From JBBIPZ01 sp037442505 [NCBI: Deltaproteobacteria bacterium] (lineage in GTDB: Bacteria > CALINM01): a stretch of 36,075 bases of DNA. How positions within the stretch are numbered: position 1 is the stretch's first letter; every line of letters begins with the position of its first letter. Of this stretch, positions 1,341-35,544 are shown piece after piece. Both the position numbers and the translations under genes were made by a program. Where the stretch lies: positions 1-36,075 of the forward strand of contig JBBIPZ010000022.1 of the NCBI GenBank assembly GCA_037442505.1, read 5' to 3'. The notes below the pieces were generated by a model, which had not been told where the DNA came from, searched no databases, and saw only the letters and a list, made by a program, of their open reading frames with translations.

Positions 1341-1359
1341 TGACCTGTCCCTTTTTTTT
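1341..1359 (-). repeat. Dispersed GGGACAGGT motif, copy 1
   Basis: On the minus strand this reads A8-GGGACAGGTCA. It lies between genes, upstream of the 1425 gene, with its CCTGTCCC strand pointing at that gene. Its GAC-CT-GTC core is a short palindrome shared with most other copies. Confidence 0.75.
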
Positions 1360-1380
1360 ACCCTAAAATCAATGATTTTA

Positions 1381-1389
1381 TGATATAAT
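1381..1389 (+). promoter_or_regulatory. Extended -10 promoter of the DUF486 gene
   Basis: TGATATAAT gives a TG-n-TATAAT extended -10 with a consensus hexamer at 1384-1389, 35 nt before the start. No good -35 is seen, as is usual for extended -10 promoters. Confidence 0.5.
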
Positions 1390-1424
1390 AATCAACTATA
1401 TAAAAAGTTTTTTGAGGTATGTTT

Positions 1425-8273: not shown

Positions 8274-8290
8274 AAAAGGGGACAGGTTAA
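8274..8290 (+). repeat. Dispersed GGGACAGGT motif, copy 2
   Basis: AAAAGGGGACAGGTTAA in the 276-bp gap between the radical SAM gene and the 8124 gene. The CCTGTCCCC strand points toward the 8124 gene. This copy has T instead of C after GGT. The rest of the gap (8125-8400) holds no gene; a G-rich run lies near 8346-8360. Confidence 0.75.
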
Positions 8291-9771: not shown

Positions 9772-9789
9772 TGACCTGTCCCCTTTTTT
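9772..9789 (-). repeat. Dispersed GGGACAGGT motif, copy 3
   Basis: Plus-strand TGACCTGTCCCCTTTTTT in the divergent region between the radical SAM and patatin genes. It ends 15 bp before the -35 box of the patatin promoter and points toward it. Confidence 0.8.
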
Positions 9790-18879: not shown

Positions 18880-19530
18880 CTAATTTTCCACCTTTTGCTG
18901 CAATAATTTTGCAAGGTAAAAATCTGAATTAGATTTCAAAATTTCTTTGTAGATGTTGTTTGCCTCAGTGAAATTATTTTTCTGCTCCAAAAGTTGTGCC
19001 TTTCTATACAAAAGTTCATCTTTAAAAGGTTTTTTTACATCTTTTAAGGCAGATTCTATAATTTTTAATACTTCATCGTACTTTTTTTCCTTAAGCAATA
19101 TATCCGTCATAAGGACATAAGCAGCACCCTTAAAGTAAGTATCTTTAACGCTGAAAACCTTTTCTAATTCTGTCTTTGCCTGAGCGATATTTTGTTCACC
19201 GTTATAAATCTGTGCCAGATAGAAAGATGCGTATTTTGAAGCAGAACTAAATGACATTCCCTTTGCCTTGAGTAAAAGCTCTTTTTTTGCTTTTATGTCG
19301 TTTTCCTTTTCGAGAGCATTAGATAGATATTGATACCCCAAAGCTTCATTATTTCTAACATAGTACGCAAAGAAACTGGCTCCGATAACAACCAGAATCA
19401 CAATTATCGAAACAACAATAACCTTAGCTTCATTCGCTTTTACATAATTCAAAAAACGTGTACTCAGAGAAAGAAACTCATCGGGTTTCTTTAGTTCTTC
19501 TTTTTTCTTGACCTTTATTTTGCGAGCCAT
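18880..19530 (-). CDS. Membrane-anchored TPR protein (YfgM-like)
   Basis: A 216-residue protein with a basic cytosolic tail (residues 1-35, including KIKVKKKEELKK), a single membrane helix at about 37-57 (VIVVSIIVILVVIGASFFAYY), and then helical repeats consistent with TPRs to the end. The layout matches YfgM-like proteins whose TPR domain lies on the outer side and works with membrane chaperones; that role is inferred. It is the first gene of the operon running down to 12489. A clear promoter (19590-19562) precedes it and AAGGGGA lies 9 nt upstream of the ATG. Confidence 0.8.
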   Translation of the reverse strand: MARKIKVKKKEELKKPDEFLSLSTRFLNYVKANEAKVIVVSIIVILVVIGASFFAYYVRNNEALGYQYLSNALEKENDIKAKKELLLKAKGMSFSSASKYASFYLAQIYNGEQNIAQAKTELEKVFSVKDTYFKGAAYVLMTDILLKEKKYDEVLKIIESALKDVKKPFKDELLYRKAQLLEQKNNFTEANNIYKEILKSNSDFYLAKLLQQKVEN

Positions 19531-19561
19531 CTAACATCCCCTTGATTTTAATGATTAGATA

Positions 19562-19590
19562 AATATAAACCAAACTTGCCTTTATGTCAA
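19562..19590 (-). promoter_or_regulatory. Promoter of the TPR-GH57-HAD operon
   Basis: On the minus strand a perfect TTGACA (19590-19585) and TATATT (19567-19562) are 17 bp apart, giving a leader of about 25 nt before the ATG at 19530. Copy 4 of the dispersed motif ends 8 bp upstream of the -35. Confidence 0.7.
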
Positions 19591-19598
19591 TTTTTTAG

Positions 19599-19614
19599 AA
19601 AAAGGGGACAGGTC
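19599..19614 (+). repeat. Dispersed GGGACAGGT motif, copy 4
   Basis: AAAAAGGGGACAGGTC between the divergent TPR and aconitase genes. The CCTGTCCCC strand points at the TPR promoter and lies just beyond its -35. Confidence 0.8.
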
Positions 19615-19693
19615 TTTTATGCACGAAAAATTTTTGTTATAAAACTTGGAAAAGTGGTGTAAAATAACTATTTACATTTTTTGGAGGTAAACG

Positions 19694-21619
19694 ATGGGGA
19701 AAAATATTGTTCAAAAAATTCTCGAAAAACATCTTGTTTCTGGACAGTTAAGAAAAGGCTCTGAAATTTCTTTTAAAATAGACCAAACTTTGACACAGGA
19801 TGCTACAGGAACGATGGCATACCTTCAGTTTGAGGCTATTGGTATCCCTAAGATTAAAACAGAGCTTTCTGTCAGCTATGTTGATCACAACACGCTACAA
19901 ACGGGCTTCGAAAACGCCGACGATCATAGATTTTTGCGCACTTTTGCAGCTAAATATGGCATTTATTTTTCTGCCCCGGGAAATGGTATCTGTCATCAGA
20001 TTCATTTAGAGCGTTTTGGTGTACCAGGTAAAACGTTACTTGGTTCCGATAGCCATACGCCTACTGCCGGTGGTATTGGGATGCTTGCTATCGGCGTTGG
20101 TGGGCTTGATGTTGCAACTGCAATGGCTGGCTATCCTTTTTACCTGATTATGCCAGAAGTCATTAAGGTTAATTTAAAGGGCAAATTGTCACCTTTCGTA
20201 ACTGCAAAAGATGTCATTCTTGAACTTTTGCGAAGACTCACAGTAAAAGGTGGAGTCGGCAAAATTTTCGAATATGCTGGAGATGGAGTAAAATATCTTA
20301 CCGTTCCAGAAAGAGCTACCATAACAAACATGGGTGCAGAATTAGGAGCAACTACATCTATATTTCCTTCTGACGAAATGACCAAGGCGTTTTTGAAAGC
20401 TGAGGGACGCGAGACTTCATTTGTTGAACTTTATGCCGATGAAGACGCTTGTTACGACGACGAGATTGTGATAGACCTTTCTACCTTAGAACCATTAATT
20501 GCATGCCCTCATTCCCCAGACAACGTAGTTAAAGTAAAGGAGCTTGAAGGAAAACCTGTGGATCAGGTTTGTATTGGAAGCTGCACTAACTCATCTTATA
20601 AAGATCTGGCAACTGTGGCTACACTACTTAAAGGAAAGAAACTACCACCTACAGTAAGTCTCGTCATATCTCCAGGCTCAAAGCAGGTTATGGAAACTCT
20701 TGATAAAGATGGTTTGCTCTACCACATTATCGCTTCAGGCGCAAGGATAATAGAAAATGCCTGCGGCCCCTGTATTGGTATGGGACAATCACCTGCAACA
20801 GGAAGTGTTTCACTCCGCACCTTTAATAGAAATTTCGAGGGACGAAGCGGAACTAAAGACGCCCAGGTTTACTTATGTTCGCCCGAAGTTGCTGTAGCAT
20901 CTGCAATTTATGGTGTAATAACAGATCCAAGACGCTTGTCTACGGAGGTCAACATTAACATACCCGATAAGTTTATAATTAATGATAATCTTATTTTTCC
21001 GCCAGCCAAAGATAGCCATAACATAGAAGTAATAAAAGGTCCCAATATTAAATCATTACCGATTGCAAAAGAATTAACACCAGAGATTGCCGGGACTGTC
21101 TTGATCAAGGTTGGCGACAACATTACAACAGACCACATAATGCCTGCAGGATCAAAAATCCTACCATTAAGGTCTAATATTCCTGCCATATCAAAGTATG
21201 TTTTTAGTGCAATAGATGAGTCTTTTTCTGAAAGGGCGTTAAAAGCAGGTGGCGGCTTTATTATTGGTGGAGAAAATTATGGTCAGGGTTCAAGCAGAGA
21301 ACATGCTGCCCTTGCACCTATGTATCTGGGGATTAAAGCAGTTATAGCAAAATCTTTTGCCCGTATTCACAGGTCAAATCTTATCAATTTTGGCATAATA
21401 CCGTTAGTTTTTGAAAACACTGATGACTATGAAAATATCGAAATGGGTGATAACTTGTTGATATCAAACTATCACAACGCTCTAATAAAAAATCAAACTT
21501 TTGAAATTAAAAACATAACAAAAAATACAGTTTTTTTTGTGCGTGCAAATCTTACAGAACGACAGGCAGAGATTATTCTGAAAGGAGGACTTTTAAACTT
21601 TGTAAAATCTCAATGTTAG
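19694..21619 (+). CDS. Aconitate hydratase, Aquifex-type
   Basis: Interconverts citrate and isocitrate in the TCA cycle. At 641 residues it is shorter than AcnA (about 890) and matches the putative Aquifex-type single-chain aconitase. The [4Fe-4S] cluster Cys are in CIGSCTNS (near 292) and ENACGPCIGMG (two Cys near 355), and substrate residues are in GSDSHTPTAGG and the C-terminal swivel domain GGENYGQGSSREHAAL. TTTTTTGGAGGTAAACG precedes the ATG, giving a strong ribosome site. It is alone on the plus strand, and its 3' end overlaps the convergent MBL gene by 47 bp. Homoaconitase is an alternative, but full length with both domains fused favours aconitase. Confidence 0.93.
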   Translation: MGKNIVQKILEKHLVSGQLRKGSEISFKIDQTLTQDATGTMAYLQFEAIGIPKIKTELSVSYVDHNTLQTGFENADDHRFLRTFAAKYGIYFSAPGNGICHQIHLERFGVPGKTLLGSDSHTPTAGGIGMLAIGVGGLDVATAMAGYPFYLIMPEVIKVNLKGKLSPFVTAKDVILELLRRLTVKGGVGKIFEYAGDGVKYLTVPERATITNMGAELGATTSIFPSDEMTKAFLKAEGRETSFVELYADEDACYDDEIVIDLSTLEPLIACPHSPDNVVKVKELEGKPVDQVCIGSCTNSSYKDLATVATLLKGKKLPPTVSLVISPGSKQVMETLDKDGLLYHIIASGARIIENACGPCIGMGQSPATGSVSLRTFNRNFEGRSGTKDAQVYLCSPEVAVASAIYGVITDPRRLSTEVNINIPDKFIINDNLIFPPAKDSHNIEVIKGPNIKSLPIAKELTPEIAGTVLIKVGDNITTDHIMPAGSKILPLRSNIPAISKYVFSAIDESFSERALKAGGGFIIGGENYGQGSSREHAALAPMYLGIKAVIAKSFARIHRSNLINFGIIPLVFENTDDYENIEMGDNLLISNYHNALIKNQTFEIKNITKNTVFFVRANLTERQAEIILKGGLLNFVKSQC

Positions 21620-22469
21620 CGTCTTCAAGGGCATAAATGACTTCTGACATTGCAATAAGTGCATTATAGTTTGAGGGGAAGATTTGAGAAAGGAACTCAC
21701 TAAATTTTTTACCTTTACTAATTGTGTTTTGTATCTTTTTTGAAACAAGATAAACATACTCTTTGTGTTCTGCCGCAACTGTTTCTGGATTTGAAAACTC
21801 ATTACCGTGTCCAGGATAAACCTTTTCTGGTTTTAAAGCAATAATCTTATCTAATGAAATAAGATAGGTTTTTAATGCATTTTCTGGATATTCTACATCT
21901 AAAAATGATGAAATTCCTTCTTTTAAAAAGGCATCTCCTGTTATCACTGCATTTTCAGACTTTAGATAAAGTCCTATAGAGCCTTTCGTGTGACCTGGAA
22001 GGTCGATTAAACTAATATTACTATCCTTAAGCTGTGTAAAGTTAAAAACAAAATCGAGTGGTTCCATTAACTCTTTGTAATAATTTATTTTTTCCAGTTC
22101 TCTTTTTGCAACCTCATCGCTAAAACCAAAGAAATTAAGTGCCTTAATGGATTTTTTTACCCTTCGTTCAATCCGTCTTGAAAAATCTTCAGACAATCTA
22201 TCTTTTTCTGCCAAAGATGCATATACGGGCACATCATATCGTTCTGAGATTTGTTTAGCTAAGCCTGCATGATCTAAATGCCCATGTGAGAGAACAACAG
22301 CATCAATGCCACCAAAGGCATTAATTTCATCAACTAATAAGTTAAGCGCATTCTCAGTTTTTGCACCCGTGTCAAATAGAATTTTATTACTTCCAGTATC
22401 AACTAAGTAAGTATTTACGTAATTTGGAGGGAAAGGCAGTTGAATATTTATTTTTTTTATTAAAGCCAT
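21573..22469 (-). CDS. MBL-fold metallo-hydrolase
   Basis: A 298-residue metallo-beta-lactamase-fold hydrolase. The zinc motif is H62-x-H64-x-D66-H67 (SHGHLDHAG), with further ligands in LPGHTKGS, GDAFL (Asp) and VYPGHGNE (His). About 100 helical residues (70-145) are inserted between the metal motif and LPGHT, and a C-terminal helix bundle follows. Such proteins include glyoxalase II-like thioesterases and quorum-lactonase types; the substrate is not clear. It lies downstream of a terminator from the cytochrome genes, so is probably transcribed separately. The last 47 bp overlap the aconitase gene. Confidence 0.88.
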   Translation of the reverse strand: MALIKKINIQLPFPPNYVNTYLVDTGSNKILFDTGAKTENALNLLVDEINAFGGIDAVVLSHGHLDHAGLAKQISERYDVPVYASLAEKDRLSEDFSRRIERRVKKSIKALNFFGFSDEVAKRELEKINYYKELMEPLDFVFNFTQLKDSNISLIDLPGHTKGSIGLYLKSENAVITGDAFLKEGISSFLDVEYPENALKTYLISLDKIIALKPEKVYPGHGNEFSNPETVAAEHKEYVYLVSKKIQNTISKGKKFSEFLSQIFPSNYNALIAMSEVIYALEDANIEILQSLKVLLSE

Positions 22470-22471
22470 AT

Positions 22472-22507
22472 AAAAAAGAATAGCACCACGGCATTTAGCG
22501 TGGTGCT
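22472..22507 (-). terminator. Intrinsic terminator after the nonaheme cytochrome gene
   Basis: On the minus strand AGCACCACG and CGTGGTGCT (22507-22499 and 22490-22482) form a perfect 9-bp stem with an 8-nt loop, followed by ATTCTTTTTT. It lies 33 nt after the stop of the gene ending at 22540. Confidence 0.85.
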
Positions 22508-22539
22508 GTATAGCTATCTAAAATTATATTTACCCGAAC

Positions 22540-24216
22540 TCAATCTAAAAGCCATCTTTTTAATGAATAAATATCATTCACACCAGGAACTACATCTGTG
22601 CCATCAGAAAGTTTATTCGGGTATGCTGCAGAGTAATTGGAAAAGTTAATTATCTTGTTTGCGTCAGCATCGGCAACTGGTCTATTAGACAATTTATTAA
22701 TATCTTTCCCTGTCTGCAAATAAAATATTGAGTGGGATATTAATCTTTTTGCATAGGTTCTGTTGTGCACATGGGCACCTTTTTCTGCTTTGAGTAGTTC
22801 ATAATTAAATGCTGCTCCCATATTATTGGTGCCACTAACACCATCACCTGACTGTGGTCCGACATCAGTCCAGTTTTTTATAGTATTGTTACTATTAATC
22901 TCCGAAGCGTCAAGCTTACCATCTCCATTATTGTCTTTGTAAAAATAAGGATACGTAGGTGTATAAAACATCCCCGTCCTTTCAAGCTCATATTTAAAAA
23001 AGTCCATTCCTCTATTAAAAATTTCCTTCTCCTCTTCTATCAACTCCGCCATATTATCACCACTATGACAACCATAACAACCAGTTGTTCCTGTCGATCT
23101 TGCAACAAAAACTGGATTTAACGTGTGAGAGCTGTAATTTGTATACGTTCCACCATTGCCAAAATGGCATGCTACACACTGCCCATCTGTACCACTACCA
23201 ACAGGTGTCGTTTGTGTAAACTGACCGGTCATACCTATTCTGGAATGAGAAAAACCAAAGTTGTTGTAGTTATCATACTTCGCAACCGAAGTATAGTAAT
23301 GATAACCTGCTTTTGCATAAAAAACACCTGCAGCAGCTAAATAATGTGGATTTTTAAAACTTGCATTTGTGAAATCGGTAATTGCCCTCACACTCTGACC
23401 ACTTTCTCTCCCTGCATGACACGGGATACAGATGTTCGATTTACTGACATTGGGAAATTGTACGTAACTATCCTTAAAATTTTCTTTATACATCGCAGTG
23501 TACTGCCCAACATTCCTTACACTATTCTTAAAGTCATAACCTGTGTGACATACTTCGCAGGTAAGAACCTCTCTTGTGTTATCGTCTGTTGATGCCCATG
23601 TTGATGTTGGTGGTGTGAAATTGCTGCTTACATAGTTGATATAACCCGTAGAAGTATGACATCTAAGACAGTTAACGCTATCTTTAAAATCCCTATTAGA
23701 CCATGCTGCAGCAGTTACCTTACCGTGCCCCGTTCTTGCATACTGCCTATGCTCCGTTGTAGGATTTGGGTTGTGTGCATTATGACAGGCAGTGCATTTA
23801 GCTTTATAATTTTTACTTACATATTGAGCAGGATGGCTACCAGATGACGTATAAACTGCGTAATGGGCTTTTGGCAAAGTGTATTCATGACAGGAAAAAC
23901 AGATACTGCCATCAGGATACTTCTGGATATTTGGAAGCTCTTTAACTGAAGACGACAACTCTATCGGATGCTGGTAATTTCCACCAGTATGGCACGAATA
24001 GCATCCCGCACCATCCTTTAGATTATGGTTAGAAGAATACCATTCATAAACAATTTTTTTATTTGTAACCTTTGACACATCATTTCTGTGGCATGATATA
24101 CATTTTGATGATTGAGCAGATGCAGAACCATTTGAAGTCAATGGTTTACCAGTATCCCCACATGAAAATAGGATGAAACTAAATATCATGATTATAAAGA
24201 AGGAAATATCTTTCAC
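22540..24216 (-). CDS. Nonaheme c-type cytochrome lipoprotein
   Basis: A 558-residue lipoprotein with nine CxxCH heme sites (CISCH, CYSCH, CFSCH, CTACH, CLRCH, CEVCH, CIPCH, CVACH and CYGCH). The signal is a hydrophobic stretch ending ILFSC, whose Cys would be lipidated, placing it at the outer membrane. It is fairly similar in plan to the dodecaheme gene upstream: both have a NICIPCHAGRES/NVCMACHTGRE segment, a SHYLAAxG or PHYLAAAG segment and an AHVHNR/YAHNR motif near the end, so they are paralogues. The GTG at 24216 has GAGGAGG 6 nt upstream; a GTG at 24231 would add five residues but has no such site. Its role would be electron transfer at the cell surface. Confidence 0.9.
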   Translation of the reverse strand: MKDISFFIIMIFSFILFSCGDTGKPLTSNGSASAQSSKCISCHRNDVSKVTNKKIVYEWYSSNHNLKDGAGCYSCHTGGNYQHPIELSSSVKELPNIQKYPDGSICFSCHEYTLPKAHYAVYTSSGSHPAQYVSKNYKAKCTACHNAHNPNPTTEHRQYARTGHGKVTAAAWSNRDFKDSVNCLRCHTSTGYINYVSSNFTPPTSTWASTDDNTREVLTCEVCHTGYDFKNSVRNVGQYTAMYKENFKDSYVQFPNVSKSNICIPCHAGRESGQSVRAITDFTNASFKNPHYLAAAGVFYAKAGYHYYTSVAKYDNYNNFGFSHSRIGMTGQFTQTTPVGSGTDGQCVACHFGNGGTYTNYSSHTLNPVFVARSTGTTGCYGCHSGDNMAELIEEEKEIFNRGMDFFKYELERTGMFYTPTYPYFYKDNNGDGKLDASEINSNNTIKNWTDVGPQSGDGVSGTNNMGAAFNYELLKAEKGAHVHNRTYAKRLISHSIFYLQTGKDINKLSNRPVADADANKIINFSNYSAAYPNKLSDGTDVVPGVNDIYSLKRWLLD

Positions 24217-24319
24217 CTGCTTCCTCCTCACTTTTTTATAATAATACCCTTTTTGATTTCATTTTGGTATAAAAATTTTTTACCTTAATTCGTACCATTT
24301 TATTTAAATATAAATAATT

Positions 24320-24338
24320 GACCTGTCCCTTTTTTTTT
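24320..24338 (-). repeat. Dispersed GGGACAGGT motif, copy 5
   Basis: On the minus strand A8-GGGACAGGTC, between the nonaheme gene and the terminator of the dodecaheme gene. Here the G-rich strand points toward the downstream gene, opposite to copies 1-4. Confidence 0.75.
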
Positions 24339-24363
24339 ACAAAACCTGCAAAGGTCTTAATAA

Positions 24364-24394
24364 ACAAAAACCCCGACTTTTTACAGTCGGGGTT
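24364..24394 (-). terminator. Intrinsic terminator after the dodecaheme gene
   Basis: On the minus strand AACCCCGACT and AGTCGGGGTT form a perfect 10-bp stem with a 6-nt loop, followed by TTTG-T tract, 26 nt past the stop at 24420. This should separate the nonaheme gene from the conduit operon. Confidence 0.85.
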
Positions 24395-24419
24395 GTAAAA
24401 ATCATGTGTTGATCAACAA

Positions 24420-26590
24420 TTATGGTCTCGTTGTACCAAGATATTTCTTTGCAGCAGCTTTTTGTGCATCTGTAAGTCCAGTTAAACTATCTATTGTTGC
24501 AGTCATATCAAGATTACCCAACGTGCCGTCTGTAACAAAATCTATAGAATCCCAGAGCAGCCTCTTAACGTAGTAACGATTGTGCGCATATCCTCCTGGA
24601 TCATGGGCAAGTAAATTAATATTGAATGCTGCACCCATAACATGTTTTGCATTTGCCTTGCCATAAAGGGCAGCCCAGTTTCTGTAAGGGGTATTAGATG
24701 TAGTGTACCAATATGGATAGTTAGGACTGAAAACTATGCCTTTTGTAGCCAAAACAGCCTTTGCAGCTTCTATAGCAGCGTTATAATCTTCTTCTTCCTC
24801 AGTAAGTTTAGCAGGCGTTAAGTCGTATGTGCCGGTATGGCATTCAGCGCAAATCTTAGAAGTAATTTCTGTAATAGCCCCAGTATCATCTTTTTTCACA
24901 TTTGTGAAGAGATGTTTATTATTTGATGTCATGTGGCATCCGATACACGGACCATTTTTAGTAACAGACGTTGCTTCTGTCAAGCCTATCTTATCATGTT
25001 TGAAGTATGAAGGATTAGCATAGTTCATTCCAGCATACTCATATCCAGTCGTTCCAAAAAGTTGACCACCTGCGGCTAAATAGTGTGAATTGATAAATCC
25101 AACACTACTAAAATTAGCAAAAAAGTTCTTAATAGAATCGCCTGTTTCACGTCCAGTATGACATGCCATACAAACATTAGAACCACTTAAATCAGGATAA
25201 TTAACTGTTGCGTTATTACTGTAAGTGAAAGTAAGTGCTCCTGGATTTCTTAAAGTACCTAATCCTGCATTTGAATGACAACCCCAGCAATACAAAAGTT
25301 CATTTTGAGCAGAAGATGTAACTGTATCTGTTGTCGCGTTACGGGACCAACCAGCAAGATGAGAGAAGTTGTTGTTTACTGGATTGTAATTTGCTGGATC
25401 GCTCAAGAAATTAGATGCACCTGTTGCAGTATGACATCTCTGACAATCTCTCCTGCTCTTGTCATCCCAATCATAGTGATTCCAGGCAGCACCAGTTGCA
25501 TCTGTTACTGCTGCCTGCATTACATAGTTTACTTTATCTTGATTTCTTGTTTTCTTGCCACCACCAGCGGTTGATGAATAGGCGGCATATTTCACTTCAT
25601 AAATACGTCCAGCATGAGCCGATTTTGCCCAATCAGTATAAGTAGTAGAAGGTCTATCTACATCTGGTCTTGTGTTCGTCTTAAAGTCATGTCCATGACA
25701 TTCCAGACATGGATGCTCAGCATTCTTCCTTATAACATAACCTTCTATACCACTACCACTTGATGTTGCTGTTTGATCCATATGTGTAGTTGCAATAATC
25801 CTATACCATGCAGTTTCATGATAAAACTTATCAGAACTAATCGTAGTGGTACCAATAGTTAAGTCTTTTCCTGAAGCAATCAATTTAGTTCCATTGTAGT
25901 TATAAAGATTGTGGCAACTTGTGCAGATGTCAAACTCATCTGTTGTTCTGTTTTGGTTCGGGTCCCAAGCTACAAGCTTACCAGTAGCTGGATCTGTTGC
26001 CTTTACAGCACGAAGTTTACCGCCATGCTCATGACAGGTTTCACAGTTGATCTCCATTTTAAAACTATTCCTATCAACTGATAGTACCGGCCTATAAGAA
26101 TTGTTTAACAAAACATTATCCTTGTCTCCTGTATAACCTAAAATATTTGACAGAATTGCTCCTTCTGAGGTATGACAACGATAGCAAGGGTCTCCTGTCG
26201 TTTCTTCATATGGTTTTGCATGGTTTGAGTTAGCCCATTTTGCAGAGCTTGTTGCAGGTGCGGTTGTTCCATTGTGACAGGTAGCACAACGTGCCTGATC
26301 TGGCTCTGGGAAAGGAATTGGTCCAACACCGTTGTGTTGAGCGCCTCCACCATGGCAGCCTTCACATCCTACGTCCTTTGTGTAATGAGCAGACCTTTGT
26401 ACTGGGCAACTATAGTTTCGCCTGTGATTCGATCTGCTGTGGCACTATGACATTGTACACATTTAGTATCTCCAACTTTAGGCACATTTGTTAAACCTCC
26501 AGATGATTTATTGTCACTCCCACAGCCATAAACGAATAAAAAACTGGTAAACAAAAACAATGCTAACAAAATGCTCTTTTTCCAACGCAT
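24420..26590 (-). pseudogene. Dodecaheme outer-membrane cytochrome lipoprotein (OmcB-like), frameshifted
   Basis: Read through one frameshift this is a protein of about 720 residues with 12 CxxCH heme sites: CVQCH before the shift, then CEGCH, CATCH, CYRCH, CETCH, CTSCH, CLECH, CQRCH, CWGCH, CMACH, CIGCH and CAECH. The signal ends FVYGC, a lipobox at Cys23. Start ATG 26590 follows AAAGGAGG. The first frame stops at 26369. Near 26394-26398 one base seems lost: adding one makes QYK-x-SAHYTKDVGCEGCHGGG continuous. The frame after the shift is open to 24420. OmcB of Geobacter is a dodecaheme outer-membrane lipoprotein, and the porin and octaheme genes upstream match its partners. Deletion or sequencing error are both possible. 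Confidence 0.85.
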
Positions 26591-26610
26591 AACAACCTCC
26601 TTTAAAAATT

Positions 26611-27315
26611 TTAATATTCTAAATGACATTTTTTGCACGTCTTATCAGGATTTCCCTTGTTCCTGATGCTGTCCTTTATTGAACGCCAATTCTTAGGATG
26701 CGGATTTACCCCACCATCCTTTGCACTATGACACTGTACACATACATCTGCTGAAGGATGACAGGAAGAACAGGATTGTAAATTTCTCCTTGCTTCCTTA
26801 GCATGCTCATCATTCCAGTAGGTCTGGTTGTTTGCCCCTAAAGGTGTGTGCGATTTAATCTTCATCGTGCCTTTGTTAGGCAACTTTTCATGACAGCTCT
26901 CACAGAAGTTTGCCTCGTGACACCTATAACAATTTTGCGGATTGTCCATAGCTTTTATAGGATGGATAGATATAAAATCAGATCTATGCGTTTTTGGCAT
27001 GTAATTCCCCTTTGTTGATATGCTTTTTTTGAGGTCCTGGTCTATCCCCCCACCAATATGACAGTCAATGCAGAATGACTGATCATGACACTCTATACAG
27101 TTGCTACCAGACTTTTCAGCAAGTATGCGATGTTCTTTTATAAAGCTGCTGTCATGATTAGGTTGAACATTTGAATTTTTATGACAGTCTAAACATTCGT
27201 TCATCTGGATATTTTTAAACTCTTTGTGGTCAGTTTTTGCCTGTAAATCAGCTATTCTAAGAAGGAGTAAGACAGCTATTGCCAAAACTAAAGTAAGATA
27301 TTTTAATGTTTTCAT
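26611..27315 (-). CDS. Periplasmic octaheme c-type cytochrome (OmaB-like)
   Basis: A 234-residue exported cytochrome with eight CxxCH sites (CLDCH, CIECH, CIDCH, CYRCH, CESCH, CSSCH, CVQCH and CKKCH). The N-terminus is a hydrophobic signal, with cleavage likely after ADLQA near residue 26, so it is soluble in the periplasm. Geobacter OmaB is a periplasmic octaheme cytochrome that hands electrons to the porin-OmcB pair in the outer membrane; the same heme number and gene order suggest the same role. A strong GGAGGAGGAG site precedes the ATG. It lies 20 bp before the dodecaheme gene and the frame is intact, unlike its two neighbours. Confidence 0.92.
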   Translation of the reverse strand: MKTLKYLTLVLAIAVLLLLRIADLQAKTDHKEFKNIQMNECLDCHKNSNVQPNHDSSFIKEHRILAEKSGSNCIECHDQSFCIDCHIGGGIDQDLKKSISTKGNYMPKTHRSDFISIHPIKAMDNPQNCYRCHEANFCESCHEKLPNKGTMKIKSHTPLGANNQTYWNDEHAKEARRNLQSCSSCHPSADVCVQCHSAKDGGVNPHPKNWRSIKDSIRNKGNPDKTCKKCHLEY

Positions 27316-27330
27316 CGCTTTCTCCTCCTC

Positions 27331-28532
27331 CTAAAAGTTAATATTCAGTGCCACCATGCCTGATAGTTATGACTGTAGTTATAGTTTTCGTCATTCTCTA
27401 TGCGGGCAACTGCACTGACATTTTTGTTTATATCACACTTGGCACCAAGCCAATATTTTTTTGCCGTGCTTTCTCTTGAATCGTCTCTTCTGAAGTCGTC
27501 ATAATCTACACCTGTAGAAATTGTTGCTTTGCTAAACTTATATTCGCCATTAATGCGAATTCCGCTTAATTCACCAGCATAACCATTCCTTTTCTCGTAT
27601 TTGATGTTCAGAACCAAATTTTTGATAGGTTTGGCAAAAAGTCCTACCTGCTAAAGATTAGCATTTTCTCCTTCATCAAAGTCTTCTCTGGCATATCCTG
27701 CACTTATCAGATAATTATTACTCAACCTGTACTCAGCCTCAATAAGCTTTTCTTTATACTTGTCAACAGCAAAAACGCTATACACAGAAGTTGTATCAAA
27801 GGTTGGATAACTTTCGTAGTATTCACCTTTCACAGTTAGTTTGTCGAAGGGAAGAAGTTTTACACCAACAAGTAACTCCGATGTGGATTCTGAGATTACG
27901 TCATATTTTGTGTTGCCGTAAAGGCTAAAACCTCTTATAGGTGTAGAAGAAAAGTCAAAACCAACAGTTTCTCTCGCAATATCGCTATCGTCATACTTAA
28001 TTCCGTAACTTAGTTCTATACGACTATTTTTGGGAAGATTCATATAAATAGCTGACCCAAAAAGTGTATCACCCCTACCTGTAATCTCTTTTTTGCTGTC
28101 AAACTGAACATTTCTACCACCAAAAACAGTAATACCTACAGGTCCCAAATTTTTTATTTCAACGTTGGCACCATCTACGATACCAGACGCTGCTGTAAGA
28201 TAAACATATTGCCTGCCTAACCTTAAATCTAAACGATCATCAAAGAGCCCTCTGTAATCAAGGTAAAGATAGTAAAGCTTGCCTTCTACATCCTCTCCTG
28301 AAGATAGCTGTTTGGATACCCGTCCATAGCCATAGACGTTAAGTTTACCTTCCTTATCAATTTTTGTAATATTGAGTTTCAGGTATTCAGAAATATCTTT
28401 TTCGGTATCCTGTGTAAAGATATCTTCATACCATAAATACTGAGTTGAACTTTTAAGAGAAATTTCAGCTGCGTTAGAAAAGGATGTATAAATTAGCAGG
28501 GCTAAAAATACCAACAAAATCTTTAGTTTCAT
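27331..28532 (-). pseudogene. Outer-membrane porin of the cytochrome conduit (OmbB-like), with TAG and 3' frameshift
   Basis: An outer-membrane beta-barrel of about 400 residues, with signal peptide MKLKILLVFLALLI..., cut near SNAA, and alternating strands with aromatic ends. RLGRQYVYL and GITVFGGRN resemble OmbB-type porins, which hold the cytochromes in the membrane. Two lesions are seen. An in-frame TAG at 27653-27651 follows EGENANL; the same frame continues QVGLFAKPIKN for 100 more codons. Near 27362-27365 a base appears missing, since the main frame ends AWWH while the shifted frame gives SGMVALNINF and then TAG at 27333-27331: a normal barrel terminus ending in Phe. AAGGAGG precedes the ATG. 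Confidence 0.82.
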
Positions 28533-28941
28533 GCAGCCCTCCTTTCGAATTAAATTGAAAAACTATACCGTGACAAACAATTGAAAAAAAATCTAATAAC
28601 GTGATAACTAAGGTGGCAATTTTTCTAAACTTGGCTTCATATCACCCACCCCCTTTTTTTCATCTTACGTTAGATAAATCACATTAATTTAAACTTGTCA
28701 AATTTGAAAAAATATCATTAAGCCATTTAACTGCATAAAAAAATTTTTTATATTTTGATTAAACTTAAAAAAACTTAATTTGTCATTTTTTTTTAAATTT
28801 CTTAAAAATTTTAACCATCCTTAATATTCAGTCAATCAACGTATTAGCCAAATTAAATTTTATCATCTTTTGAAAATAAAACTTTTTTGGTAATATTACT
28901 TGTGAAATCTAAGTAAGCCAAAACTTAATTCCGGAGGCATT
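28533..28941. other. Very AT-rich divergent region between porin and ridA
   Basis: No gene is visible in these 409 bp. A minus-strand TTGACA (28701-28696) with a poor TTTATC -10 17 bp away could drive the porin operon with a leader of about 135 nt; I see no known riboswitch in that leader. The rest is A and T tracts. Confidence 0.5.
28870..28896 (+). promoter_or_regulatory. Possible ridA promoter
   Basis: TTGAAA (28870-28875) and TAATAT (28891-28896), 15 bp apart, a short spacing. The -10 lies inside a palindrome GTAATATTAC (28890-28899) that could bind a regulator. Confidence 0.3.
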
Positions 28942-29322
28942 ATGAAGCAAGAAATTTTTACCGATAGAGCACCCAAGCCGATAGGACCGTATTCTCAGGC
29001 AATAAAGGTGGGGGATTTTTTGTTTATTTCTGGGCAGATTGCTATAGATCCAGTAAGTGGATTATTTGAAGCAGGAGATATTTCAATTCAGACAACTATG
29101 GTGATTGAAAACATAAAGAAAATTCTGCAAGAGGCATCATTTACATTTGATGACGTTATTAAAACTACAATTTACTTAAAAAATATGGAAGACTTCCCCA
29201 CTGTAAACAATATTTATGCAGAATATGTGAAAAAACCATATCCTGCAAGATCTACTGTGGAAGTAAGCAACTTACCAAAAGGCGCATTGGTAGAGATAGA
29301 CGTAATCGCTTACAAAAGCTAA
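28942..29322 (+). CDS. ridA: RidA enamine/imine deaminase
   Basis: A 126-residue RidA (YjgF/UK114) protein that hydrolyses reactive 2-aminoacrylate-type enamines and imines released by PLP enzymes, protecting them from damage. The N-terminal [25 protein letters not shown] and the C-terminal [20 protein letters not shown], with its conserved Arg near 104, are characteristic, and the protein should be a trimer. CCGGAGGC lies 5 nt before the ATG. It is a single-gene unit whose stop overlaps the stop of the convergent rpmB by 4 bp. Confidence 0.96.
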
Positions 29323-29513
29323 ATTGCTTTTTCAACTCTGCCGCTTTTGATACAGTTTGTGCACACTTTTATACGTCTTACTGTACCACAAGACAACTTT
29401 GCCTTAACTGTTTGAAGGTTTGGCATAAAAAGCCTTTTGGTCTTGTTGTTAGCATGACTTACGTTGTTACCTTTAAGAGCACCTTTTCCACAAATACTGC
29501 ATATCTTAGACAT
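29319..29513 (-). CDS. rpmB: 50S ribosomal protein L28
   Basis: Ribosomal protein bL28, 64 residues, of the zinc-binding type: C5-x2-C8 (CSIC), Cys42 and C51-x2-C54 (CTNC). The family signature KCSICGKG...[13 protein letters not shown] is clear. AAAGGAG lies a few nt before the ATG. It stands alone, not beside rpmG as in E. coli. Upstream there are two tandem TTATAACGA units and several TATAAT-like boxes (see the finding). Confidence 0.97.
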
Positions 29514-29552
29514 AAAATACTCCTTTTAATTTGCTTTACAAGATTAACAATA

Positions 29553-29575
29553 CGTTATTATAACGATTATAACGA
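29553..29575. repeat. Palindrome and tandem 9-mers upstream of rpmB
   Basis: CGTTAT-T-ATAACG (29553-29565) is a 6-bp palindrome, and TTATAACGA occurs twice in tandem at 29558-29575. This lies 40-60 nt upstream of the rpmB start and could be an operator or a set of -10 boxes. Confidence 0.4.
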
Positions 29576-29643
29576 TTGAGCATTATATTATCACCTGTAA
29601 AAAAAATTTTTTCAATAAAAAATTTCAATTTCATTTTTTGTTT

Positions 29644-29660
29644 GGGACCTGTCCCCTTTT
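29644..29660 (-). repeat. Dispersed GGGACAGGT motif, copy 6
   Basis: Plus-strand GGGACCTGTCCCCTTTT, in which GGGAC and GTCCC form a 5-bp inverted repeat around CT, the most symmetric copy. It lies between the divergent rpmB and addA genes and ends 9 bp before the addA -35. Confidence 0.8.
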
Positions 29661-29669
29661 AATTTTGGT

Positions 29670-29699
29670 TTGACTTTTTTTGTTTTTGTTAAATAAAAT
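29670..29699 (+). promoter_or_regulatory. Promoter of addA-addB
   Basis: TTGACT (29670-29675) and TAAAAT (29694-29699) are 18 bp apart, giving a start point near 29706 and a leader of about 12 nt with no clear Shine-Dalgarno. Confidence 0.5.
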
Positions 29700-29717
29700 C
29701 AAAATGGGTATTATTAC

Positions 29718-32700
29718 ATGGCAAACTTCAATAACAATAATAAAGGCTTTATTTTAGATAAATTCCCCCACTTCAAGCTTATTAAGGCATCAGCTGGAAC
29801 TGGCAAAACATATATACTTTCTAAAAGGATATCTGAGTTTTTGCTCTCTGACATAGCCAACAACAACCTTAGAAACATTCTTGCCATTACTTTTACTGTA
29901 AACGCCGCTAAGGAAATGAAACAACGTGTAATAGCCTGGCTGAAAAATATAGCCCTCTCTGATAAAGAAACCCTAAAAAATTTTAACATCAAGGAAAAAG
30001 ACTATTTCTCCCAAAAAGCTAATGATGTAATAAATCAAATCTTCCTTAACTATAAAGATTTCCAGATAAAAACAATCGACAGTTTTCTTACATCTATCTT
30101 CAAAGCATGCTCGGTAGACTTTGGGTTTCCAGAAGACTTTAAAGTAGCTTTAAATAACAAAGAATATCTAAAATCTGCATTTAACAACTATCTTAATACC
30201 ATTGATTCACTTGATCACAATTTTATAAAAATTGTTGAATTTATTAATGAAAGTGACAATAGCTTTAAATTTGATCCACTAAACGCAATTTTCAATACTA
30301 TCAGAAAGCTTTATGTAAAACAGAGACATTACTCAACTGGTTTTGTTAATAAAGATAGAAGTGAAGATTTTAAAAAGATTAAACAAGAAATATCAAAACT
30401 TATAGCAGAAATTCAATCACTTATTTATAAACACGGCATAACAATAAGCGGTAAGTGCGGTCTTATAAAAATGATTGAAGATATTAACAAGGATGACTAC
30501 CAAAGTTTCTTTGAACGTGGTGACAAAGCAACTCCCATTAAAAAGGAAGATGTTAATGCTAACTGGGCAAATGAACTACTAAAACTATGGGAAGAACTTA
30601 AAGACAAAAAATTACAGGCATTATACCTTTATTCAGAGAATTATTATTATCCGTATATTTGGTTTCTTGGAGAATTGGATAAAATCTTAAAAGACGTTAA
30701 AGCAAAAGAAGAAGTTGTATTTATAGAAGATATTCCATCGATAATTTTGAAAAACGTTGGAAGTTTTACTATACCTGATGTTTATATTAAGCTTGGCGGC
30801 AGACTATATCACCATTTTATTGATGAGTTTCAGGATACTTCTCCAATACAGTGGGCTAACTTAAAAGAATTTATTGATAACTCATTGGCTCAGGGTGGTA
30901 GTTTATTCATTGTTGGAGATACTAAACAGGCTATCTACGGATTTAGAGATACTGATTATGAGATTATGAATAGTATCAGCAAAGAATGCCCTTTTGAATC
31001 AAGTAAGGAAAGCTTTTCAGTAGAGACATTAACCACCAATTTTCGTAGCGAAGAAGTGATTTTAAATTATGCAAAGTGTGTTTTTGGTGATATCAATTCA
31101 CAATATAGCGAAAATTTCGCTGATAGCGGTCTGTTCAACTGGGATTTTGATGTTAAAGACGAACAGAAAAACAAAGGTTATGTAGAGGCAGTAATAATTA
31201 AAAACGACACTGATACAGAAATACCAGTGGAAAGACAACATCTAAAAGAAATCCTGGAAGACTTGTTAAATAGAGGTTATACGTACAATGACATTGCTAT
31301 TTTAGCCCACAAAAACAGTGAGATTGTTGAAATATCCACGTGGCTTAACGAAGAAGGGCTGCCGTTTCTCTCTTTTAGCAGTCTGGACATTAGAGATAGA
31401 AAGGTTATAAAAGAGTTAATCTATTTGCTCAAGTTTTTTGATAATCCAAGAGATAATTTTTCTTTTGCATTCTTTTTAAAAGGAGAAATTTTTAAAAAAT
31501 TATGCCCCAACATTAATATAGATCATTTTATCTTTATGAACAAAAATACCTCGTTTTTATACAAGGCATTTTGCAAAGAATACCCACAAATATGGGAAAC
31601 GAGTTTTAAAGCCCCTTTTAATTACGTTGGCTATTTGCCTATATACGAGCTCGTAATATCAATAATAAATAGCTTTAAGATTACAGAAAATTTCGAAAAC
31701 GAAACAGGGGCAATAGCTAAGCTGCTTGAAATACTGAAAGATTTAGAGTCTAACGGCAACAATTCTTTAAAAGAGTTTTTAGAATTTTTAGATAGCCACG
31801 AAGAAGACGTGTACGAATCGAGTAGAATATTTGAGCTTTCTATACCACAAAATGCCAATGCAATAAAACTTATGACTGTTCATAAAGCAAAAGGATTGGG
31901 GTTCCCTGTAGTTATTTACTTTTTGTATGGTTCAAATAAAAATAGAAGCGAAAGCATAAAAATATATGAAACTACAGATGGATTAAAAATATTTAAACTT
32001 ACCCAAAAAATGGCAAATGACACGTTAGCTGAAATTTATTATAATATCAACAAAAAAGAAAAAATTAACGAACTGAACAGTATTTATGTGGGGCTTACTC
32101 GTGCCCAACAGGAACTTTATCTGCTTGGCATAGTCAAAGATAACAAAACTACTAATGAAAAATTGCCGTTTCCCGTAGACTTAATTAAGGTAACAACCAT
32201 GGGCTACAAACATACTTTACAAAATCATTCTAAAACTGAGACAAAAAACTCTTCAGAACTAAAAATTAGTTTTTCCCAAAACTTAAAAATCCAGCGAAAT
32301 TTTAAAAACAAAATAGCCTTTGAAGAAAAACAACGTGGCGAGTTTATCCACCTAATACTTTCAAAAATTGATCATCTAAATGATTTCACAATACAATCCA
32401 TAGCTGAAATTTTTCAAAAACTTTCTAACGTAAGCTTTTCATTAAATCTTGATAAGATCAGCAAAGAAATTTTAGACTTTCTTGCAAATAATGAGATTGC
32501 TGCATTTTTCCAGATACCAGATGCAAAAGTCTATGTAGAAAAAGAGTTTGTTTCTGCAGAATACGGTACTATCCGTATTGACAGATTGATTATCAAGCCA
32601 GAAAAGGCTATCATTGTTGATTTTAAGACCGGTGAAAAAGATAACGCATACAATGCACAATTAGAAAAATATGCAAAAGTGGTTAAAGAGATTTATGATA

Positions 32701-32765
32701 AACATATTGAATGTTTTATACTTTACTTAGATAAAAAAGAGGCTATAAAAGTATATGAATGTTGA
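29718..32765 (+). CDS. AddA-type UvrD/RecB helicase-nuclease
   Basis: A 1015-residue SF1 helicase with a C-terminal nuclease, the AddA (RecB-like) half of the double-strand-break resection complex that loads recombinase in RecA-dependent repair. Motifs: Walker A ASAGTGKT (24-31), motif Ia ITFTVNAAKEMKQR, motif II FIDEFQDTSP near 367, motif III GDTKQAIYGFR, KLMTVHKAKGL near 715, and VGLTRAQQEL (motif VI). The C-terminal nuclease has RIDRL and VDFKTG near 955-975, the PD-(D/E)xK core. It is shorter than the usual 1200-residue AddA. The stop overlaps addB by 11 bp. It has no strong ribosome site and a short leader. Confidence 0.9.
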   Translation: MANFNNNNKGFILDKFPHFKLIKASAGTGKTYILSKRISEFLLSDIANNNLRNILAITFTVNAAKEMKQRVIAWLKNIALSDKETLKNFNIKEKDYFSQKANDVINQIFLNYKDFQIKTIDSFLTSIFKACSVDFGFPEDFKVALNNKEYLKSAFNNYLNTIDSLDHNFIKIVEFINESDNSFKFDPLNAIFNTIRKLYVKQRHYSTGFVNKDRSEDFKKIKQEISKLIAEIQSLIYKHGITISGKCGLIKMIEDINKDDYQSFFERGDKATPIKKEDVNANWANELLKLWEELKDKKLQALYLYSENYYYPYIWFLGELDKILKDVKAKEEVVFIEDIPSIILKNVGSFTIPDVYIKLGGRLYHHFIDEFQDTSPIQWANLKEFIDNSLAQGGSLFIVGDTKQAIYGFRDTDYEIMNSISKECPFESSKESFSVETLTTNFRSEEVILNYAKCVFGDINSQYSENFADSGLFNWDFDVKDEQKNKGYVEAVIIKNDTDTEIPVERQHLKEILEDLLNRGYTYNDIAILAHKNSEIVEISTWLNEEGLPFLSFSSLDIRDRKVIKELIYLLKFFDNPRDNFSFAFFLKGEIFKKLCPNINIDHFIFMNKNTSFLYKAFCKEYPQIWETSFKAPFNYVGYLPIYELVISIINSFKITENFENETGAIAKLLEILKDLESNGNNSLKEFLEFLDSHEEDVYESSRIFELSIPQNANAIKLMTVHKAKGLGFPVVIYFLYGSNKNRSESIKIYETTDGLKIFKLTQKMANDTLAEIYYNINKKEKINELNSIYVGLTRAQQELYLLGIVKDNKTTNEKLPFPVDLIKVTTMGYKHTLQNHSKTETKNSSELKISFSQNLKIQRNFKNKIAFEEKQRGEFIHLILSKIDHLNDFTIQSIAEIFQKLSNVSFSLNLDKISKEILDFLANNEIAAFFQIPDAKVYVEKEFVSAEYGTIRIDRLIIKPEKAIIVDFKTGEKDNAYNAQLEKYAKVVKEIYDKHIECFILYLDKKEAIKVYEC

Positions 32766-35511
32766 AGTTGTAAACCCTGAGGAGAATATATTTGGGTATC
32801 TGTATCAAAAGCTATTGAAGGAGGGGGTAGATTTTTCGCAAAACCTGATAGTCTTTCCCGGTAAAAGACCTAAATATTTTTTACTTAACGAAATATCAAA
32901 ACAAATAAAAAAATCTTTTGTGCCACCTGCAATACTCTCTATGGATGAATTTATAGACTTTTGCTATGAAAGGGAGTTAGGGCTGAGTCATAAAAAAATT
33001 GATGCGCTATCAGCATGCAAAATCATGAAAGAGCTGGTCTCAAATAATGATTTGTATAAATCACACTTAAAGTCGTTCAATACTTTTTTGTCGCTCGGTT
33101 TTAAACTTTTTTCTATATTTGAAGAGTTGCTTATAGAAAATGTTTCAGCTAATAAATTGAAAAACGAAGACTTCAACATCGACGCAACATATACTATAAC
33201 TAACCTCAAAAGACTCTCAACAATATATGAACATTTTTACCAAAATCTTGAAAACAGCAATCTGTCCACACGTTCAGTAAGATATAAAAAAGTTTCTGAA
33301 AGCAAACTAAACTTAAGCGATTACAGAAAGATAGTGTTTGCAGGCTTTTTTGGATTAACCACATGTGAAAGAGCTATTTTTAATTCATTGATGAATGACG
33401 AAAGAGTATCTTTTATATTTCAGGGAGAAACTGCCAAAGAGTATGCCTTAAACAAAACATATAAGCCAGCTTCAAATTATTACGATAACATTGAGATTTT
33501 TGAATGCCCTGATACACACTCACAAGTATTTAAGGCTGCAGAAATGTTAAATAATGCGACAAAAAAATGCAACGAAACTTTCTTAATCATATTGCCATCA
33601 TCTACCACATTAATTCCCCTTATAAATGCACTTAAATTTGACTTTGAAAGTTATAACATTTCTCTGGGATATCCCTTAAAACGCACACCAATATTTTCGT
33701 TTATAAATCATCTTTTCAGCTTAATTTCATCTAAAAAAGACAATTACTTTGATGCGATAAGATATCTGAACTTTGTCTTGCATCCATACACAAAAAACAT
33801 AACTCTAAACCTACATGCAGAAGACACAAGAATCCTTTTTCATACAATAGAAGAACATTTAAATCAAAATAAATTAAAGACGCTCATAAAAATTAGTGAA
33901 CTCGAAGATAAACATTTCATTGATAGGATTTCTGAGGTTTTTAATGGTTCCTGTTCAAGCGAACAACTCCTCACTCATATAAAGACAATTCATGAAAATA
34001 CAATTAAACCCTTTGAAAAAATCGAAAACATTAAAGATTTTGCTGTCAAAATAAAACAACTTGTTAACTTCATATACGAACACAGCACTGCAAAAAAACA
34101 TATTTTATTTTTCCCCTATTGCGAGTCGTTAATATCCGCACTAAATGAATTAGAGTGTTCACTTATAGCAGATGAGCGTTTCCAGAACGTAGATGAGTAT
34201 TTTGATTTTTTTAGCAGATTTATTTCGATTTATAATGTTCCTTTTAAAGGCACGCCAATAAAAGACATTCAGGTTCTCGGATTTTTAGAATCAAGAAACC
34301 TAAAATTTGACAACGTTTACATACTCGATTTAAATGAGAGCGTGCTTCCAAACACACAGAAAGAAGAAACTATTCTTCCATATGACGTTAGAATGCGTTT
34401 GGGACTACCTACATATAAAGATAGAGATACTTTGTACGATTATTACCTTAATGGTATTATTGCAGGAGCCAAAAATGTGTCAATTTTTTATATAGAAAAC
34501 GACACAAACGAAAAGAGCCGATTCGTTGAAAAAATTATATGGGAAAAACAAAAAAAAGATAAAAATCTTAAAAAGCAGTATTTTACTCCAATCAGTTATA
34601 AATTTAGTTTATCGCCATATAAACCATGTTCTGTTACAAAAAATGATGATATCAATACTTTATTAAAGAATCTGACATATTCTGCCAGTACATTAGATAC
34701 TTACTACAGCTGTCCTGCAAAGTTTTATTATCAATACATTTTAATGCCATCTAAAGAGGATTCACTTGAAGAAGGACCTGAGAGCAAAGATATTGGCAAC
34801 ATCATTCATAAGATATTGTATGAATACTATACAGATAAAAAGCTGAATTGGGATGAAGAGAAATTTAATAATATATTAGATAGAGAATTTCGTGATAAAT
34901 TTGGTAAAGAATTACGGGGTGAAACATTAATCATCAATTATCAAATAAAAAAAAGAATCGGCGAATTTATTAGAAGTTATTACGAAAAATATCGCGACAG
35001 TGTTGAAATCGTTGAATTAGAGAAGACGTTAGAGACAGAAACAAACATTTCGGAGATAGGAAACATTAAAATTAAAGGCAGAATAGACAGGCTTGAAAAA
35101 AGATATGGAGAACTTTACATCATTGACTATAAGACAGCTGGCCCAGTAGATAAATACAAGGTCAAATGGGAAAAATTTAACATTAACGAAAGAGATAATT
35201 GGAAGAAGTCATTCAAAACAATACAAATGATGTTTTACTACTATTTACTGAAAGCTACTAACCAATCCCCAGCCAATGCAAGCGTTATATTGCTTGGAAC
35301 TAAAATTTCAGACAAACAAGAAATAAAGCTTTTTGCTGGTGGAACTGAAAACGAAGTTATTGAAAAAACGATTAGAGAAGAGATTGAAAACCATATCATT
35401 AAAATTATCGAAACTCTTTTCATGGAAATAATAAAAACATCAACTTTTGAACCCACTAAAGACTTAAAAGAATGTGCAAGATGCACTTACAAAAACATCT
35501 GCTGGAACTAA
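32755..35511 (+). CDS. AddB-type helicase-like nuclease with Fe-S cluster
   Basis: The 918-residue partner of the helicase upstream, with the layout of AddB. The N-terminal helicase-like part lacks an obvious intact Walker A (VFPGKRPKYF is seen), as expected of the inactive motor that binds the Chi-type site. The C-terminal PD-(D/E)xK nuclease has GNIIHKILYEYY, GRIDRL and YIIDYKTA (residues 774-790). An iron-sulfur cluster is suggested by Cys in YYSCPAKFYY near 654 together with CARCTYKNIC at 906-915. It overlaps addA by 11 bp. No ribosome site with strong GGAGG is seen at the ATG, consistent with translational coupling. Confidence 0.88.
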   Translation: MNVEVVNPEENIFGYLYQKLLKEGVDFSQNLIVFPGKRPKYFLLNEISKQIKKSFVPPAILSMDEFIDFCYERELGLSHKKIDALSACKIMKELVSNNDLYKSHLKSFNTFLSLGFKLFSIFEELLIENVSANKLKNEDFNIDATYTITNLKRLSTIYEHFYQNLENSNLSTRSVRYKKVSESKLNLSDYRKIVFAGFFGLTTCERAIFNSLMNDERVSFIFQGETAKEYALNKTYKPASNYYDNIEIFECPDTHSQVFKAAEMLNNATKKCNETFLIILPSSTTLIPLINALKFDFESYNISLGYPLKRTPIFSFINHLFSLISSKKDNYFDAIRYLNFVLHPYTKNITLNLHAEDTRILFHTIEEHLNQNKLKTLIKISELEDKHFIDRISEVFNGSCSSEQLLTHIKTIHENTIKPFEKIENIKDFAVKIKQLVNFIYEHSTAKKHILFFPYCESLISALNELECSLIADERFQNVDEYFDFFSRFISIYNVPFKGTPIKDIQVLGFLESRNLKFDNVYILDLNESVLPNTQKEETILPYDVRMRLGLPTYKDRDTLYDYYLNGIIAGAKNVSIFYIENDTNEKSRFVEKIIWEKQKKDKNLKKQYFTPISYKFSLSPYKPCSVTKNDDINTLLKNLTYSASTLDTYYSCPAKFYYQYILMPSKEDSLEEGPESKDIGNIIHKILYEYYTDKKLNWDEEKFNNILDREFRDKFGKELRGETLIINYQIKKRIGEFIRSYYEKYRDSVEIVELEKTLETETNISEIGNIKIKGRIDRLEKRYGELYIIDYKTAGPVDKYKVKWEKFNINERDNWKKSFKTIQMMFYYYLLKATNQSPANASVILLGTKISDKQEIKLFAGGTENEVIEKTIREEIENHIIKIIETLFMEIIKTSTFEPTKDLKECARCTYKNICWN

Positions 35512-35530
35512 TCCCCACCCCACCCCATAT

Positions 35531-35544
35531 AGGGGACAGGTCCT
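35531..35544 (+). repeat. Dispersed GGGACAGGT motif, copy 7, beside the transposase gene
   Basis: AGGGGACAGGTCCT, in which GGAC and GTCC form a 4-bp palindrome around AG, with CCCC-ATATA-GGGG just before it (35523-35535). It lies 95 bp upstream of the RAYT start. Unlike the other copies it lacks the A-tract, having TATA before the G-run. Confidence 0.8.

What the first reader, a model, noticed from the sequence alone, without database searches (positions are those of the whole stretch)
1341..35544. Seven intergenic copies of a GGGACAGGT motif, likely tied to the RAYT transposase
The 9-mer GGGACAGGT is found in seven places (1341, 8274, 9772, 19599, 24320, 29644, 35531), all between genes and none in the roughly 33 kb of coding sequence. 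Most are extended to A(4-8)G(3-4)ACAGGTC. Expected chance occurrence for a 9-mer on both strands of 36 kb is under one (4^9 is 262,144), and less in AT-rich DNA. One copy lies 95 bp before a REP-associated tyrosine transposase, the class of enzyme that spreads short intergenic repeats. I infer that these are REP-like elements with an unusual short GAC-xx-GTC core instead of the classic long hairpin.
Basis: partly seen in the sequence, partly recalled or inferred. Interest (0 to 1): 0.72.

Follow-up and report, generated by a model that had tools for sequence, protein, structure and literature searches.

The report
Solitary transposon-end motifs between genes
A very short, unvarying DNA word sits in seven of the nine larger gaps between genes of this bacterium and is most likely the recognition end of a known type of single-strand transposase, scattered on its own and without the hairpin that such repeats usually have.

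Summary
In detail: GGGACAGGT occurs seven times, always between genes (expected 0.09), once in each of 7 of 9 intergenic regions of 100 bp or more, with no degenerate copies. None of 230 genomes of the nearest class is similarly rich. The RAYT link is supported, though not by the window, where nearly every gap has a copy. In genome G156, which holds the nearest RAYT relatives found, 5 of 8 such genes carry GGGACAGG 83-109 bp upstream; it is the left border of a duplicated RAYT unit; and a solitary 24-bp copy of that end lies in another intergenic region. The word fits GGGGWSAS, published for terminal repeats of TIRYT transposases (PMC3733652, PMC6006769). The REP-hairpin reading fails: no hairpin, no GTAG foot in the unit, no inverted pairs. 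Best reading: solitary ends of a TIRYT-type element at REP-like density, a new variant of a known kind. The core never varies and 6 of 7 copies lie 63-98 bp from a start codon, so a regulatory site is the main rival. The window's own genome is not held; genome-wide counts were impossible.

The parts
1343..1351 (-). GGGACAGGT copy (AAAAAAGGGACAGGTCAATAATA); 67 bases from the start of the DMT-type gene at 1419, pointing away from it
8279..8287 (+). GGGACAGGT copy (CAAAAGGGGACAGGTTAATAATC); 154 bases from the start of the minus-strand gene ending at 8124
9774..9782 (-). GGGACAGGT copy (AAAAAGGGGACAGGTCAGTTATT) in the divergent region between a radical SAM gene and a patatin gene
19605..19613 (+). 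GGGACAGGT copy (AAAAAGGGGACAGGTCTTTTATG) in the divergent region before the aconitase gene
24321..24329 (-). GGGACAGGT copy (AAAAAAGGGACAGGTCAATTATT) before a multihaem cytochrome gene, pointing to it
29647..29655 (-). GGGACAGGT copy (TAAAAGGGGACAGGTCCCAAACA) before the UvrD/AddA-like gene at 29718, pointing away from it; the one copy without T-N-A-T
35533..35541 (+). GGGACAGGT copy (ATATAGGGGACAGGTCCTTAATC) before the transposase gene, pointing to it; the one copy without an A run
35639..36075 (+). Y1 (HUH) transposase gene of RAYT/TIRYT type, 3' part beyond the window; HUH motif NHFH, insertion between HUH and the (unseen) tyrosine region

Best explanation
The seven copies are solitary ends of a TIRYT-type element: the roughly 20-base recognition sequence (A-rich flank, GGGACAGGT, then an AT-rich stretch with T-N-A-T) that marks the left border of a Y1/HUH transposase gene unit, spread through intergenic DNA without the gene. 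Likely working: the transposase, of which one gene begins at 35639, recognises this end on single-stranded DNA, cuts at its A-rich outer border and joins copies of it to other A-rich single-stranded sites; only insertions outside genes and upstream of promoters survive. Shown: the count, the intergenic placement, that GGGACAGG is the left border of a duplicated transposase unit in another genome, and that a solitary copy of that end exists there. Inferred: that the window's transposase made the seven copies, the single-strand route, and the target preference.
For: Seven copies against 0.09 expected, all intergenic. Nearest RAYT relatives found are 8 copies in G156 (7 at 46-52% identity, 1 at 38%); 5 of 8 have GGGACAGG 83-109 bp before the aligned start. 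L108 and L109 of G156 are two copies of one unit: they are alike from ATAAAGGGACAGG to just past the stop codon and unlike outside. L230 shares 24 bases (GGGACAGGAAAATAATACTTGACA) with them, has no transposase after it and lies between two ORFs, 168 bases before one. The shorter RAYTs of G291, G400 and G253 (3 loci) are flanked by GGGGACAGGCTACTTT in inverted orientation, and G291 holds AAAGGGGACAGG 22 times against 1 for the control, mostly as inverted pairs 35-64 bases apart. Published TIRYT terminal repeats share GGGGWSAS (PMC6006769); the five G4 copies fit it, the two G3 copies lack its first base. A viral contig (L102) carries an inverted pair AAAAAGGGGACAGGTCCAATTTG...CAAATTGGACCTGTCCCCTTTTT.
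Against: The copies share only about 10-16 bases and then differ, and there are no decayed copies (seven score 28.5-34.0, the next place in the window 9.0), which is odd for a mobile family. 6 of 7 lie 63-98 bp from a start codon, where published REPs are mostly downstream of genes (PMC3733652). In G156 itself the end is not abundant (10 matches against 8 for the control), and 3 of 8 RAYT copies there lack it. G156 outer flanks are not all A-rich. No right end of the window's element can be seen. The copy before the RAYT is expected anyway at 7 of 9 regions.
Confidence: 0.6

Rival explanations
1. The word is an operator or other promoter-linked binding site of a host DNA-binding protein (a regulator or a nucleoid protein), and the transposase gene is one of the genes it controls.
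For: The 9-mer is invariant with no near-matches; 6 of 7 copies lie 63-98 bp from the nearest start codon (1.6e-4 for random places in the same regions, but the 60-100 range was chosen after seeing the data); one copy per region (0.023 by chance); no inverted partner; copies occur in both orientations, as for a near-symmetric GAC-N2-GTC site.
Against: Operators usually vary and are not in 7 of 9 intergenic regions; GGGACAGG is a unit border and a solitary duplicated end in G156 and belongs to the published TIRYT repeat consensus. Every larger intergenic region here has at least one start codon beside it, so upstream position alone is not informative.
Confidence: 0.22
2. They are remnants of longer paired elements (MITE or REPIN-like, as in G291) that have lost one end and the middle.
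For: G291 and G253 have inverted pairs of the related end, and L102 carries a complete short inverted pair with the same end.
Against: No second end, even a decayed one, scores above 9.0 anywhere in the window, while all seven remaining ends are intact; loss of one end only, seven times, is unlikely.
Confidence: 0.1
3. A DNA uptake signal or another chromosome-wide signal word, unrelated to the transposase.
For: Short, asymmetric, invariant, AT-rich beside it; a pilus-type ATPase gene is in the window.
Against: Such words (recalled, not from a call) are common inside genes; here 0 of 7 are, and the word marks transposase units elsewhere.
Confidence: 0.04

Closest known systems
TIRYT / TIRtron (TIR-associated tyrosine transposases; Di Nocera et al. 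2013, PMC3733652)
   Same: Y1/HUH transposase of RAYT kin; end motif GGGGWSAS at a fairly fixed distance before the gene; repeats of the ends elsewhere in some genomes.
   Different: Here the repeats are solitary, share only about 10-16 bases, and are found in 7 of 9 larger gaps; the paper describes longer terminal inverted repeats, many in dimers or clusters.
TnpA-Y1 subclass 2.3 (Quentin et al. 2018, PMC6006769)
   Same: Window protein and its G156 relatives have an insertion between HUH and Y regions and, in G156, the Y motif YIDLNP; plasmid relatives have YVDLNP and 316-364 aa.
   Different: HUH is NHFH, not NHYH; that paper found no REP-like structures beside subclass 2.3 genes. I see a short end motif: in 13 gammaproteobacterial loci GACACCC lies upstream in 9 and inverted downstream in 6.
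REP/REPIN with RAYT (PMC2817692 and PMC3116915 seen in listing only; PMC8266576 in passages)
   Same: Short repeats confined to intergenic DNA and tied to a Y1 transposase.
   Different: No hairpin, no GTAG in the 23-base unit, no paired copies.

Membership tests
REP element | Stable single-strand hairpin | tested here: not met
   40-nt folds of all 7 copies: 0 to -3.3 kcal/mol, z from +0.95 to -1.93
REP element | GT[AG]G tetranucleotide at the foot | tested here: not met
   None in the 23-base aligned units; wider flanks were not searched for it
REP element | Confined to intergenic DNA, many copies per genome | tested here: inconclusive
   7 of 7 intergenic in 36 kb; genome not held
TIRYT / TIRtron | Y1/HUH transposase of RAYT kin | tested here: met
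   PF01797 4.3e-8, motif NHFH; catalytic tyrosine lies beyond the window
TIRYT / TIRtron | Terminal motif GGGGWSAS near the gene start | tested here: met
   GGGGACAG before the gene at 35532; 5 of 7 copies fit fully, 2 lack the first G
TIRYT / TIRtron | Inverted copy after the gene | not testable with these tools
   Gene runs off the window. In G156 only 1 of 8 loci shows an inverted GGGACA within 600 bp downstream, and L108/L109 homology ends at the stop codon, so this may not hold for the subfamily
TnpA-Y1 subclass 2.3 | Insertion between HUH and Y, Y motif YVDLNP, about 325 aa | tested here: inconclusive
   Insertion present; Y motif and length not visible; G156 relatives YIDLNP, about 306-317 aa when complete

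The most novel reading that the evidence does not exclude
A transposase family whose whole dispersed repeat is a hairpin-less end of about 20 bases, planted once just upstream of most genes or operons in the genome, where it has been taken over as a promoter-side binding site of the transposase or a host protein: a transposon end turned into a genome-wide regulatory mark.
Probability: 0.15. Interest if true: 0.72.

Novelty: new variant of a known kind. Interest (0 to 1): 0.42.

Why it matters
REP spread by RAYTs is understood through hairpins and GTAG feet. If a Y1 transposase of the hairpin-less TIRYT kind can fill intergenic DNA with its bare end at about one copy per 5 kb, the hairpin is not needed for such spread, and the recognition unit is only about 20 bases. 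It would also give subclass 2.3-like enzymes, reported without REP-like repeats, a defined end motif to test in vitro.

Tried and rejected
Rfam: no family in the window. REP hairpin: rejected on folding. GAC-xx-GTC core as the conserved unit: rejected, GTC not kept in G156. Inverted partner ends in the window: none by weight matrix. Promoter carried by the motif: a TTGACA box follows the end in several G156 copies, but the seven window copies show no common box (my reading), and promoter-like sites in 19400-36075 are no more frequent than in shuffles (64 against 62.8). Same motif in relatives: AGGGGACAGGTC at most 4 per genome in 176 genomes of the order, GGGACAGGTNNNTNAT at most 5 per genome in 230 of the class (6 of the 7 window copies fit that pattern in 36 kb). 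Conservation at the same loci could not be tested: nearest AddB 49% among 395 genomes, aconitase 59-66% in the listed rows for 194 of 230 genomes. Transposase relatives in viral contigs: none. AAAAGGGGACAGGTC in viral contigs: 19 stretches, 18 with one copy, whose coding status I did not check; only L102 an inverted pair. Plasmid relatives: 13 loci examined, all 6 records and 7 of the 26 (chosen because the match spanned the insertion; the rest were not fetched). GACACCC was first seen in the first six loci (4 of 6 upstream) and then tested on the other seven (5 of 7 upstream; 2 of 7 downstream); two of the thirteen (L169, L200) have neither; several records are close kin. GACACCCANNNTAAT in the six plasmid records: 13 places in 3 records against 1 for the control; those of W03 and three of six of W05 flank the transposase, those of W06 do not lie at the transposase found there. 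Of five RAYT loci outside G156 fetched, L113 is cut upstream by the contig end and shows no motif downstream, L115 was not examined. A literature search for the bare word gave only unrelated papers in the list shown.

Full report
Observation. GGGACAGGT is present seven times in the window on both strands, none in genes, against 0.09 expected. The seven copies take one place each in seven of the nine intergenic regions of 100 bp or more; the two without are 297-538 and 28533-28941. A weight matrix over 23 positions gives the seven 28.5 to 34.0 and the next best place in the window 9.0, so there are no half-decayed copies. Six of seven lie 63-98 bp by the script's measure from the nearest start codon, the seventh 155. 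That clustering is unlikely for random places in the same regions (1.6e-4), but the range 60-100 was set after seeing the data.

Setting. The window is 35% G+C. Its AddB-like protein finds best relatives among Nitrospirota (181 of 395 genomes of the phylum match, best 49% in G291), and its aconitase is at most 66% identical to any of the class in the rows listed, so no close relative is held.

The transposase. A Y1_Tnp gene begins at 35639 and is cut by the window end. In 176 genomes of the order the only close relatives are eight copies in G156, seven at 46-52% and one at 38%; the other matches are short and weak. The G156 proteins and the window protein share an insertion between the HUH motif and the tyrosine region, and the G156 proteins have YIDLNP. 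More distant full-length relatives on plasmids of Alteromonadales have YVDLNP. This resembles subclass 2.3 of Quentin et al. (sections 12 and first part of 15 read), though HUH is NHFH here.

The motif is a transposon border. In G156 five of eight copies have GGGACAGG 83 to 109 bp before the aligned start, three do not; of those three, one match begins inside the reading frame at no start codon (L111). Two copies, L108 and L109, are alike from ATAAAGGGACAGG through the gene to just behind the stop codon and unlike outside: the motif is the left border of a unit that has been copied. L230 has the first 24 bases of that unit, and no transposase, between two ORFs: a solitary end. So solitary ends exist in a relative, although there they are rare: the looser pattern gives 10 places in G156 against 8 for the control, and 4 of the 10 are transposase ends (C17, C29, C55, C78) plus the one solitary copy in C91.

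Wider family. Shorter RAYTs in G291, G400 and G253 are flanked by GGGGACAGGCTACTTT in inverted orientation. G291 has AAAGGGGACAGG 22 times (control 1) and G253 14 times (control 0), in G291 mostly as inverted pairs, with a short palindromic unit seen at C15 and C22. Di Nocera et al. 2013 named transposases with such ends TIRYT and gave the shared motif as GGGGWSAS (passages); Quentin et al. repeat it and place 20 of 26 TIRYTs in subclass 2.1. In thirteen gammaproteobacterial plasmid loci of the subclass 2.3-like kind the place of the motif is taken by GACACCC, upstream in 9 (nearest copy 61-82 bp before the start) and inverted downstream in 6, on both sides in 4, neither in 2. These share GACA and often a following TAAT with the window motif, but do not fit GGGGWSAS.

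What it is not. The seven copies have no hairpin, no GTAG in the aligned unit and no partner; they are not REPs or REPINs as defined. The copy before the transposase is no evidence by itself, because most gaps have one.

Judgement. The most likely reading is that these are solitary TIRYT-type ends spread by the transposase (0.6). What speaks against it is the invariance of a very short core, the lack of decayed copies and the closeness to start codons, which suit a binding site (0.22). No relative in 230 genomes shows such density, so the spread would be a trait of this lineage.

Noticed in passing
window 24420-27330, minus strand: Multihaem cytochrome (MtrC/MtrF-like domain) coding runs through three frames in turn (open about 27330-26616, 26641-26374, 26444-24425, CxxCH motifs in each), so the gene looks frameshifted or the assembly has errors.
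   Followed up: partly
L102 3434-3524 (viral contig): A palindromic unit of about 91 bp whose ends read AAAAAGGGGACAGGTCCAATTTG lies just before a reading frame in a 66% G+C contig.
   Followed up: partly
L132, L143 and other G291 places: REPIN-like inverted pairs of AAAGGGGACAGGCTACTTTT at 35-64 bp spacing, dispersed in G291.
   Followed up: partly
L172 upstream of the transposase: Two direct copies of the GACACCCA...TAATATTTG end, 66 bp apart, before one transposase gene; L198 has four GACACCC copies upstream in a repeated block.
   Followed up: no
G156 L106, L108, L109: The transposon end is followed at once by TTGACA and a TATAAT- or TAAAGT-like box, so the left end seems to carry the gene's promoter, and the solitary copy L230 keeps the TTGACA.
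   Followed up: partly
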